In this document: positions 31,974 through 34,062 of the stretch, piece by piece
How positions within the stretch are numbered: position 1 is the first letter of the stretch
Layout: each line of letters starts with the position of its first letter
Source: a virus
Length of the DNA: 34,062 bases
Virus record (IMG/VR): IMGVR_UViG_3300037488_002163
Location: 1-34,062 of that record
Strand: one strand, 5' to 3'
Notes under the pieces: generated by a model
Seen by the model: the letters and a program-made list of their open reading frames with translations, nothing else
Told to the model about the DNA's origin: nothing
Databases searched by the model: none
Program-made: the position numbers and the translations under genes

Positions 31974-32049
31974 CTTCCATGCCTCCATTTTTATTAATTA
32001 CGAAATAAAGCGTAGTACACACTTTTTAAAAAGTAAAATCGAATTACAA

Positions 32050-32062
32050 TACATATAATAAC
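32050..32062 (-). promoter_or_regulatory. shared 13-bp block upstream of the primase gene
   Basis: TACATATAATAAC is identical to 27229-27241. On the minus strand it reads GTTATTATATGTA. It lies upstream of the primase gene as its twin lies upstream of the early operon. A clear -35/-10 pair is not seen here. Confidence 0.65.
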
Positions 32063-32081
32063 ACAATTTTTTCTGGGCGTG

Positions 32082-32111
32082 CAGTTATTGGCAGTTATTG
32101 GCAGATAATCC
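32082..32111. repeat. 10-bp tandem repeats upstream of the primase gene
   Basis: CAGTTATTGG twice in tandem (32082-32101), then CAGATAATCC. The unit differs from CACTTATTTG of the 27.2-kb repeats at two of ten bases. Confidence 0.8.
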
Positions 32112-32154
32112 CATGGTTTAGTTACTACAGACAGCAATGAGCACCTTTAAACAT

Positions 32155-32164
32155 ATTATATGTA
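32155..32164 (+). promoter_or_regulatory. third copy of ATTATATGTA
   Basis: Rightward copy of the 10-mer, followed by TTAAT as in the 27.2-kb promoter. It lies just before the 32164 palindrome. Confidence 0.5.
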
Positions 32165-32187
32165 TTAATCAATTTTAATTGATTAAT
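32164..32187. repeat. 24-bp palindrome
   Basis: ATTAATCAATT, TT, AATTGATTAAT: two exact 11-bp arms with a 2-base centre. It could be an operator or a cruciform-forming part of the origin. Confidence 0.8.
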
Positions 32188-32337
32188 TTTGTCGTTTTGG
32201 GGGTGAAACTACAAAATTTTTGTAGTAACTGTTTTTTGTAGTAAATTTTGTAGTAGCTGTGACGCTATATAAATCAAGCCTTCCCGAGGTTTTACTACAA
32301 AACTACAATTACTACACTTTTTAAACGCTTATATATT

Positions 32338-32396
32338 AAGAGATAATATATAATGCATATAATCAACTACAATATATACATTATATATTATCTCTT
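32338..32396. repeat. 18-bp perfect inverted repeat, AT-rich
   Basis: AAGAGATAATATATAATG (32338-32355) and its exact complement (32379-32396) flank 23 bases that hold an AACTACA site. Nearly all A/T, suited to easy melting or a cruciform. Confidence 0.9.
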
Positions 32397-32523
32397 TATT
32401 ATTATTATTTTTTGTAGTAAATGTAGTAAATGTAGTAAAGGGGTAAAAAGCCTATATATTGCAAGGGGTTACGAGTTACTACAGCGTTTTCCATTTTACT
32501 ACGTTTACTACGTGTTTTTCGAT

Positions 32524-32552
32524 TTGACACCGATTATATGTATACCTATAAT
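32524..32552 (+). promoter_or_regulatory. perfect consensus sigma70 promoter
   Basis: TTGACA (32524-32529), exactly 17 bases, TATAAT (32547-32552). Its spacer contains ATTATATGTA (32533-32542), and two TTACTACG sites end 11 bases before the -35 box. Such a perfect promoter must be under strong control. Confidence 0.93.
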
Positions 32553-32588
32553 GTAGCTAAGGATTTCAAAAACCAGAGGATTTACAGG

Positions 32589-32888
32589 ATGTTAACGCAA
32601 GATTTGAAAAGACTGGTGCTCGCCCGAAGAGAGGGAGAAACACTGCTCATTGCAGACGATAGAGTCCAATACATAGGCATGAGTGCGGCAGGGACGGCGC
32701 TAGTGCTTATCAATAGCGAGCGGGTACAGCTAGAGGTCAACTACAGCTATCCAATCAAAAACTACTACATTAGGCTTATGGCCTCCCCCTACGCTGACAA
32801 ACACCCAGAGATAAAAATTGCGATAATAGCGCCACCAAGCGTGGTTGTCCTGCGCAAAGAACTGCTAGGCCGCCGACGTCGTGTCTAG
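32589..32888 (+). CDS. CsrA/RsmA-like translational regulator with central insertion, 99 aa
   Basis: CsrA dimers bind GGA motifs in mRNA leaders and change translation and stability. Here residues 9-21 (LVLARREGETLLI) match the CsrA start LxLTRrvGEtlxI, and residues about 75-95 (IKIAIIAPPSVVVLRKELLG) match VrIGInAPkeVaVhREEI, including the key Arg. CsrA is usually 60-65 residues; here about 35 extra residues (LINSERVQLEVNYSYPIKNY and beyond) lie between the two halves. ATG 32589 (GAGG 9 bases upstream) is right because an upstream ATG at 32538 lies inside the promoter. The end is basic (RRRRV). Confidence 0.78.
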   Translation: MLTQDLKRLVLARREGETLLIADDRVQYIGMSAAGTALVLINSERVQLEVNYSYPIKNYYIRLMASPYADKHPEIKIAIIAPPSVVVLRKELLGRRRRV

Positions 32889-33156
32889 CTCATTAGATTT
32901 TTTTTTTACAATGTGGGAATTTGACCCTCACAAGACAAGGGTAGAGCTGCTTAAAATGTGCGCGGGGTTATCGTGTGTTTTGGATCCTGAGGAGTTTGAG
33001 CAGTACACAAAAGCATTGATTAAAAAAGACGCAAAAAAGTTAAGATTTTTATTGTATTACTCAGCGCTGATAATCGCAGAGCTGAGCATAAAAGAAATGA
33101 GCGAGAAAGAAATTAAAGAAGCATTTAAGGAAAACTTTGGAGGAATCACCAGTTGA
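32881..33156 (+). CDS. hypothetical protein, 91 aa (or 81 aa)
   Basis: Starts at GTG 32881, overlapping the CsrA-like stop, or at ATG 32911 (MWEFDPHKTRVELLKMCAGL). The core is helical (DPEEFEQYTKALIKKDAKKL, then LIIAELSIKEMSEKEIKEAF), with no recognised family. Neither start has a good ribosome site, so coupling to the gene upstream is likely. Its stop overlaps the ParB-like start. Confidence 0.6.
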   Translation: MSSSLDFFFTMWEFDPHKTRVELLKMCAGLSCVLDPEEFEQYTKALIKKDAKKLRFLLYYSALIIAELSIKEMSEKEIKEAFKENFGGITS

Positions 33157-33707
33157 TCGCGCCCTATCACGCCGAAAATTTTGAGCTAAAAAAACTTGAT
33201 GAGCTAAAACCCAACAAAAGAAATTCACGCAAGCACCCCCAAAAACAGGTTGATCAACTATGTGCTTCGATCCTTGAGTTTGGTTTTACTATTCCAATTC
33301 TAATCGACGAGGAATGCACAGTATTAGCAGGTCACGCACGCCTAGAAGCTGCCAAAAAGATCGGGCTTGATGTTGTGCCAACTATCACCGCCGCTGGCTG
33401 GAGTGAAGCCCAAAAAAAGGCTTATCTAATCGCTGACAATAAACTGGCGGAGAATTCAGAGTGGGATTTTGTAATTTTAACGGCTCAGCTAGAAGAGCTT
33501 GAAACTGAAGATTTTAACTTTGATTTTTTAGGGTTTAGCGAACAGCTAGACAAAGAAACAAACGATGAAAACGTTTCAGAAGGATTAATAGAAAAAGCTT
33601 TTAATGATGATTTTAATATTTTAATTACATTCAAAGAGGAAGAAGAGTGCAGGTCTCTTTTTGAAGAGTTAAAAGAAAGGGGGATGTCTTGCAAAATTAT
33701 CACGTAG
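33153..33707 (+). CDS. ParB/Srx-fold protein, 184 aa
   Basis: Residues about 12-95 carry the ParB N-terminal pattern: LDELKPNKRNSRKHPQKQVDQL, GFTIPILIDEECTVLAGHARLEAAKK with the GHxRLxAA box, and ADNKLAENSEWD. The second half is acidic and helical, and there is no ParB HTH domain, so this is not a partition protein. Stand-alone phage members act in DNA modification or processing, some with NTPase or nuclease activity. The start is TTG 33153 in a TTGA overlap. The following ABC-type gene suggests joint action. Confidence 0.85.
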   Translation: MIAPYHAENFELKKLDELKPNKRNSRKHPQKQVDQLCASILEFGFTIPILIDEECTVLAGHARLEAAKKIGLDVVPTITAAGWSEAQKKAYLIADNKLAENSEWDFVILTAQLEELETEDFNFDFLGFSEQLDKETNDENVSEGLIEKAFNDDFNILITFKEEEECRSLFEELKERGMSCKIIT

Positions 33708-34062
33708 AGTTATCTTCAGACGCTGAAGATACTTTTTTTAATAATTACGTGGCTAGTTCTGTCGACCTAGATATTAAAAAAAAGCTTTCTCACAGGCTTT
33801 CCGTGTCAGCGGATGTTATTTCAAATTTTTCAATTGGGCTTATAGTTGGTAGTAGCGGATCTGGGAAAACTTCTTTGGCAAGAAAAATGTTTGGGGACTT
33901 TTCCACTATAACTTTAAACGAGGAAAAATCAATAATTGATTCTTTCCCCGATGAAATCCCCGTAAAGGAAAGGATTGGGTTTTTAGGAGCAGTTGGGCTA
34001 ACTTCCGCAGTTTGCTGGATCACAAAGATAAAATATCTTTCAAATGGGCAAAAATATAGAGC
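33689..34062 (+). CDS. ABC-type ATPase, N-terminal part (cut by window end)
   Basis: TTG 33689 has GGGGG 4-8 bases upstream and overlaps the ParB-like gene by 19 bases. Residues about 45-60 (SIGLIVGSSGSGKTSLARKM) hold the Walker A, and LSNGQKYRA just before the window edge is the ABC signature (normally LSGGQ). The Walker A to signature distance is short, so this is a compact ABC cassette. In some phages such ABC proteins pair with ParB-like and acetyltransferase domains in DNA modification; whether this one does cannot be seen here. Confidence 0.8.
   Translation, partial: MQNYHVELSSDAEDTFFNNYVASSVDLDIKKKLSHRLSVSADVISNFSIGLIVGSSGSGKTSLARKMFGDFSTITLNEEKSIIDSFPDEIPVKERIGFLGAVGLTSAVCWITKIKYLSNGQKYR

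What the first reader, a model, noticed from the sequence alone, without database searches (positions are those of the whole stretch)
32589..32888. Phage-encoded CsrA/RsmA-like protein split by a central insertion
The two ends align with the first and last strands of CsrA (LVLARREGETLLI and IKIAIIAPPSVVVLRKEL), including the Arg of the RNA-binding site, but about 35 extra residues lie between them. CsrA-type genes have been noted in a few prophages and mobile elements; an enlarged form in an early control region, read from a perfect promoter, could let the phage seize host post-transcriptional control or control its own early genes.
Basis: partly seen in the sequence, partly recalled or inferred. 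Interest (0 to 1): 0.78.

Follow-up and report, generated by a model that had tools for sequence, protein, structure and literature searches.

The report
Phage CsrA, probably a fused dimer
A phage carries a stretched version of the bacterial RNA-binding regulator CsrA that is probably two CsrA units fused into one chain with only one of the usual two RNA-binding sites left, a natural design that also turns up in other phages and in plasmids and that I found no report of.

Summary
Window 32589-32888 (+) encodes 99 aa whose two ends match CsrA in order: Pfam PF02599 28.7 bits (cut-off 27), E 1.3e-6; 0 of 2000 shuffles reach its score. RNA-contact residues L4, R6 and R44 are kept, a perfect sigma-70 promoter lies upstream, and the gene is under purifying selection (pN/pS 0.08).

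The "insertion" reading probably needs correcting. Related proteins (viral contigs L183, L176, L243, L204, L292; Pseudomonas phage vsMR; Xanthomonas and Stenotrophomonas plasmids) are two CsrA units in one chain. From first to last CsrA strand, P0001 spans 83 residues, as do L183, L176 and L243; E. coli CsrA spans 45. All keep the first beta1 and last beta5, which together make one composite RNA site; the other site is merged, deleted or mutated (R44 to D in two).

Placing P0001 itself in this group is inferred. Its middle has no significant sequence match; only length and strand pattern (4/5000 shuffles) support it, and AlphaFold failed on it. Ordinary csrA genes in phages are known; I found no description of the single-chain, one-site form.

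The parts
32524..32552 (+). perfect sigma-70 consensus promoter TTGACA-17-TATAAT
   Evidence: 12/12 match; both hexamers kept in L002
32559..32588 (+). short leader with three GGA triplets (the last overlaps the start codon, CAGGATG). Possible target of the protein itself, but three other genes of the window have as many
   Evidence: no unusual RNA fold (z 0.08)
32589..32888 (+). CsrA-family protein P0001, 99 aa; proposed single-chain tandem CsrA
32610..32660 (+). unit 1 beta1-beta2: RLVLARREGETLLIADD (Leu11 = CsrA L4, Arg13 = R6)
   Evidence: profile positions 2-17; shuffling residues 15-24 drops the score, 0/5000 as good
32661..32807 (+). central 49 residues (25-73): proposed unit 1 beta3-beta4, merged beta5/beta1, unit 2 beta2-beta3; beta-rich
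   Evidence: no significant profile match; strand-propensity pattern like vsMR, 4/5000; span equals the tandem proteins
32808..32864 (+). unit 2 beta4-beta5: EIKIAII-AP-PSVVVLRKEL (Arg89 = CsrA R44, Glu91 = E46)
   Evidence: profile positions 28-52
32881..33156 (+). next ORF, start overlaps the csrA-like stop; 91 aa, no known family
33153..33707 (+). ParB-like nuclease-domain protein, same operon
   Evidence: Pfam ParB_N 2.6e-6, phrog_620 7.8e-46
33689..34060 (+). P-loop ATPase, cut by the end of the record
   Evidence: phrog_11143 7.4e-20

Best explanation
The gene encodes a CsrA-family RNA-binding protein in which two CsrA units have been fused head to tail. Unit 1 supplies beta1 to beta4, unit 2 supplies beta2 to beta5, and beta5 of unit 1 and beta1 of unit 2 are merged into one degenerate strand. 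In an ordinary CsrA dimer each RNA site is built from beta1 of one chain and beta5 of the other; here the first beta1 and the last beta5 are intact, so one composite site remains and the other is lost. The phage most likely makes the protein early from its consensus promoter. It would bind single GGA motifs near ribosome-binding sites of phage or host mRNAs and block translation, or compete with host CsrA. It would need no partner chain and could not bridge two sites. Shown: CsrA homology of both ends, conserved contact residues, a gene under purifying selection, a perfect promoter, and the existence of clear tandem relatives. Inferred: tandem architecture of P0001 itself, RNA binding, timing and targets.
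For: CsrA match above the Pfam cut-off, shuffle test. The vsMR protein aligns with P0001 over 91 aa at 31% identity, E 4e-7 for that pair. In vsMR the CsrA profile is hit twice with overlapping positions, 1-24 at residues 1-24 and 10-48 at residues 50-88, and the second copy of the beta2 region is beyond chance (12/5000 and 1/5000 shuffles). L183, L176, L243, L204, L292 and the plasmid proteins each carry two clear CsrA units. Span from L2 to E46: P0001 83, L183/L176/L243 83, vsMR 85, plasmids 86, E. coli CsrA 45. Every tandem keeps L4, R6 and A36/P37/R44/E46 of one site; L204 and L292 have D at R44 of the other. Published geometry, site = beta1 + beta5 of opposing monomers: PMC7652899, PMC3791407. 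AlphaFold of L183: nine strands, core confident, leading PDB matches CsrA/RsmE. P0001 and vsMR share the strand-propensity pattern of the middle (4/5000). pN/pS 0.08.
Against: P0001's own middle scores no better than its shuffles against the tandem, RsmN-type or plain CsrA profiles, and deleting residues 25-62 raises the plain CsrA score (27.4 to 35.3), as a simple insertion would. AlphaFold on P0001 gave no usable model (pLDDT 35). The strand-pattern result is the best of six comparisons; hydrophobicity gave 26/400 against vsMR and nothing against the other tandem groups. L176/L243 keep an Arg in the merged strand, so loss of the second site may not be complete in all tandems. No expression or binding data.
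Confidence: 0.6

Rival explanations
1. An ordinary one-unit CsrA carrying an unrelated beta-rich insertion of about 38 residues between beta2 and beta3. It would still dimerise and bind two RNAs, with the insertion adding a contact surface.
For: The central region has no detectable CsrA similarity of its own. RsmN shows that insertions between beta2 and beta3 exist.
Against: Exact span agreement with tandem CsrAs (83 residues); shared strand pattern and end-to-end alignment with vsMR, whose second half carries a repeated beta2-beta3.
Confidence: 0.25
2. A member of the RsmN/RsmF type, where an inserted helix between beta2 and beta3 re-routes the chain into a non-swapped dimer.
For: Same insertion place; RsmN-type genes do occur in phages (L177, L208).
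Against: The extra stretch is 38, not about 16, residues and beta-rich rather than helical (mean strand/helix propensity 1.12/0.99 against 0.93/1.09 for the RsmN insert); the RsmN-type profile gives no support for the middle.
Confidence: 0.05
3. A degenerate CsrA relative that no longer binds RNA and serves another role, for example as a protein-binding module.
For: Low score (28.7 bits), far below the CsrA equivalog cut-offs (24.2 against 73).
Against: Contact residues L4, R6, A36, P37, R44 and E46 are all kept and the gene is under purifying selection.
Confidence: 0.1

Closest known systems
CsrA/RsmA/RsmE (Pfam PF02599)
   Same: beta1-beta2 and beta4-beta5 sequence, all main RNA-contact residues, expected GGA-directed translational control
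   Different: ordinary CsrA is about 60 aa, one unit per chain, domain-swapped homodimer with two RNA sites; P0001 is 99 aa with probably one site
RsmN/RsmF of Pseudomonas aeruginosa (PMC3791407)
   Same: CsrA family member enlarged between beta2 and beta3
   Different: RsmN has a 16-residue helical insert and still forms a two-site dimer of two chains
CsrA dimers with R44A in one polypeptide (Mercante 2009, as described in PMC7652899)
   Same: CsrA with one working RNA site
   Different: made in the laboratory from ordinary CsrA; did not give full glgC repression
Long 'carbon storage regulator' proteins of Xanthomonas and Stenotrophomonas plasmids, e.g. pXCV183 WP_041854964.1
   Same: tandem CsrA with merged beta5/beta1 and the same surviving site
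   Different: far stronger CsrA scores; C-terminal tail; on plasmids; annotated as plain CsrA
CsrA proteins of phages (30 of 2517 phage genomes, PMC7366521)
   Same: phage-borne CsrA family gene
   Different: most phage CsrAs seen here are single-unit; PHROG 5527-size forms (about 123 aa) have a C-terminal extension, not a second unit

Membership tests
CsrA family (PF02599) | Score above the curated gathering cut-off | tested here: met
   28.7 against 27 bits; L002 copy 30.4
CsrA family (PF02599) | RNA-contact residues L4, R6, A36, P37, R44 | tested here: met
CsrA proper (NCBIfam NF002469/TIGR00202 equivalogs) | Score above equivalog cut-off | tested here: not met
   24.2 against 73 and 21.3 against 70.1 bits
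CsrA proper | About 60 aa, five strands, one unit per chain | tested here: not met
   99 aa, 38 residues longer between beta1 and beta5
CsrA proper | Domain-swapped homodimer with two RNA sites | tested here: inconclusive
   P0001 model failed; no multimer prediction available
CsrA proper | Binds GGA motifs in RNA | not testable with these tools
   needs gel shift
RsmN/RsmF | About 16-residue helical insert between beta2 and beta3 | tested here: not met
   38 residues, beta-rich by propensity
Tandem (single-chain) CsrA, defined here | beta1-to-beta5 span about 83-86 residues (longer with a linker) | tested here: met
   83
Tandem (single-chain) CsrA, defined here | Second CsrA unit recognisable by sequence | tested here: inconclusive
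   clear in L183, L176, L243, L204, L292, plasmids; supported in vsMR; not detectable in P0001
Tandem (single-chain) CsrA, defined here | One composite RNA site intact, residues of the other lost | tested here: met
   P0001 unit 1 residues 36-46 read SERVQLEVNYS, without AP or R44

The most novel reading that the evidence does not exclude
A widespread but unrecognised class of single-chain CsrA pseudo-dimers lives on phages and plasmids; several lineages have lost the second RNA site in different ways, giving monovalent CsrAs that cannot bridge RNAs and need not mix with host CsrA subunits. P0001 is one of its most diverged members. The L183 tandem model also matches 14 BFVD phage proteins at E below 0.001, mostly without names.
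Probability: 0.45. Interest if true: 0.75.

Novelty: new variant of a known kind. Interest (0 to 1): 0.6.

Why it matters
CsrA is thought to need two RNA sites per dimer for full repression of some targets, shown so far with engineered dimers carrying R44A (PMC7652899). Natural one-chain, one-site versions on mobile elements would let that be tested directly and suggest that phages and plasmids favour a monovalent form, perhaps to avoid mixing with host CsrA or being soaked up by multi-site sponge RNAs. They are annotated as ordinary CsrA, or not at all.

Tried and rejected
Close relatives of P0001: only L002 in IMG/VR; none in GenBank phages or plasmids; genome scans with P0001+L002+vsMR and with vsMR found no enlarged relative. 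Neighbouring-gene route through the ParB protein: no CsrA in 49 other viral contigs. Leader as an autoregulatory CsrA target: three GGA triplets, but three of 47 other gene starts have as many, conservation is no higher than in the neighbouring intergenic DNA, and there is no special fold: not supported. Sponge RNA in the window: no Rfam match and no outstanding ANGGA cluster. PHROG 5527 (123 aa) as the same kind: rejected, C-terminal extension. P0001 model for a fold search: not used, pLDDT 35. MT836588 looked like a tandem hit but is a single CsrA matched by both halves of the query. MAFFT alignments that placed the extra residues after beta4 conflict with the profile match of residues 73-97 and were dropped. 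No paper on fused or tandem CsrA was found; the library lacks most subscription journals, so that absence is weak.

Full report
The gene. Window 32589-32888 on the + strand is a 99-residue ORF (P0001). The window is one IMG/VR virus record. It is a tailed phage with a large terminase, portal, major capsid protein and tape measure, a Prim-Pol/DNA primase gene, a Sak4-like annealing protein and a helicase, and a Mu-Gam-like protein. Its portal and primase have only distant matches (below 60% identity) in GenBank phages. P0001 starts a rightward gene row with a 91-aa ORF, a ParB-like protein and a P-loop ATPase, divergent from the primase gene. The promoter 32524-32552 is a 12 of 12 sigma-70 match with a 17-nt spacer. 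One near relative exists, L002. Across the gene the two differ by 17 synonymous and 4 nonsynonymous changes, pN/pS 0.08, and the other frames are not protected.

CsrA membership. Pfam CsrA is hit above its gathering score (28.7 against 27 bits, E 1.3e-6, two stretches), and PHROG 9500 'CsrA-like regulator' follows. A CsrA profile built here from viral CsrAs gives 27.4 bits, against a maximum of 13.7 in 2000 shuffles. The contact residues L4, R6, A36, P37, R44 and E46 are present as L11, R13, A81, P82, R89 and E91. It is far below the CsrA equivalog cut-offs, so it is a diverged family member, not CsrA proper. csrA genes in phages are known (30 of 2517 phage genomes, PMC7366521) and common in IMG/VR (507 confirmed in one capped scan).

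The extra 38 residues. Searching for enlarged CsrAs first gave the protein of Pseudomonas phage vsMR, which aligns with P0001 end to end (31% identity over 91 aa). In vsMR the CsrA profile matches twice with overlapping profile positions: 1-24 at residues 1-24, and 10-48 at residues 50-88. Shuffling the residues before its second beta3 shows that the repeated beta2 region is beyond chance (12/5000 and 1/5000). A viral scan then gave proteins that are unmistakable tandem CsrAs: L183 and L176, later L243 and L292, and L204 with a linker. On plasmids, Xanthomonas and Stenotrophomonas carry the same architecture annotated simply as 'carbon storage regulator'. In L183 the profile positions 1-37 are followed at once by a complete second unit, so beta5 of unit 1 and beta1 of unit 2 share one strand.

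Fit of P0001. Counting from CsrA L2 to E46, P0001 spans 83 residues, L183, L176 and L243 also 83, vsMR 85, the plasmid proteins 86, and E. coli CsrA 45. The strand-propensity pattern of P0001's middle follows that of vsMR (4 of 5000 shuffles as good; this was the best of six such comparisons). Against this, no profile recognises P0001's middle, and deleting it raises the plain CsrA score. AlphaFold gave no usable P0001 model (pLDDT 35). I therefore treat tandem architecture as shown for L183, L176, L243, L204, L292 and the plasmid proteins, well supported for vsMR, and inferred for P0001.

Structure and sites. AlphaFold of L183 gives nine strands at the expected places with a core confidence around 85, and the leading PDB matches are RsmE, CsrA and RsmN (E-values only 0.01-0.1, since PDB chains hold one unit). 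Fourteen BFVD phage proteins match it at E below 0.001, the best named 'Carbon storage regulator', most of the others unnamed. In the CsrA dimer each RNA site is made of beta1 and beta5 of opposing monomers (PMC7652899), with sheets beta5A-beta2B-beta3B-beta4B-beta1A (PMC3791407). Reading unit 1 as chain A and unit 2 as chain B, the intact first beta1 and last beta5 form exactly one composite site. The other site is lost in several ways: strands merged (L183, L176, L243), deleted or degenerate (vsMR, plasmids, P0001), or kept with Arg44 replaced by Asp (L204, L292). L176 and L243 keep an Arg in the merged strand, so some residual binding there cannot be excluded.

Mechanism. The proposal is a monovalent, single-chain CsrA that occludes GGA motifs at ribosome-binding sites without needing a partner and without bridging. 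CsrA dimers with only one working site do not fully repress glgC, while at least one natural target has a single site (PMC7652899), so such a protein should act on a subset of targets. Whether it acts on host or phage mRNAs is not known. The leader of its own mRNA has three GGA triplets, but that is not exceptional in this genome.

Verdict. New variant of a known kind.

Noticed in passing
window 31989-32588: Intergenic control region between the divergent primase and csrA-like genes holds 11 of the window's 16 copies of GTAGTAA/TTACTAC in both orientations, plus a 27-nt AT-rich inverted repeat (32335-32361/32373-32399); looks like an origin or multi-operator region.
   Followed up: partly
window 32049-32059, 32155-32165, 32533-32543: ATTATATGTAT (one copy inverted) occurs three times, once inside the spacer of the perfect promoter, so that promoter may be operator-controlled.
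   Followed up: no
L177 (IMGVR_UViG_2663762798_000002): One phage contig carries three RsmN-like csrA genes (helical insert type) close together on the same strand.
   Followed up: no
L235 3001-3634 (Xanthomonas citri plasmid plB): A tandem csrA lies directly upstream of an ordinary csrA, a natural pair for comparing one-site and two-site forms.
   Followed up: no
L128, L137 and related phage CsrAs (about 123 aa): CsrA with a conserved C-terminal extension of about 60 residues of unknown role.
   Followed up: no
BFVD A0A6G5YEX0, A0A2I7QSD7, G8CTD4 and others: Unnamed phage proteins whose predicted folds match the tandem CsrA model at 1.4-1.9 A rmsd over 82-89 columns.
   Followed up: no
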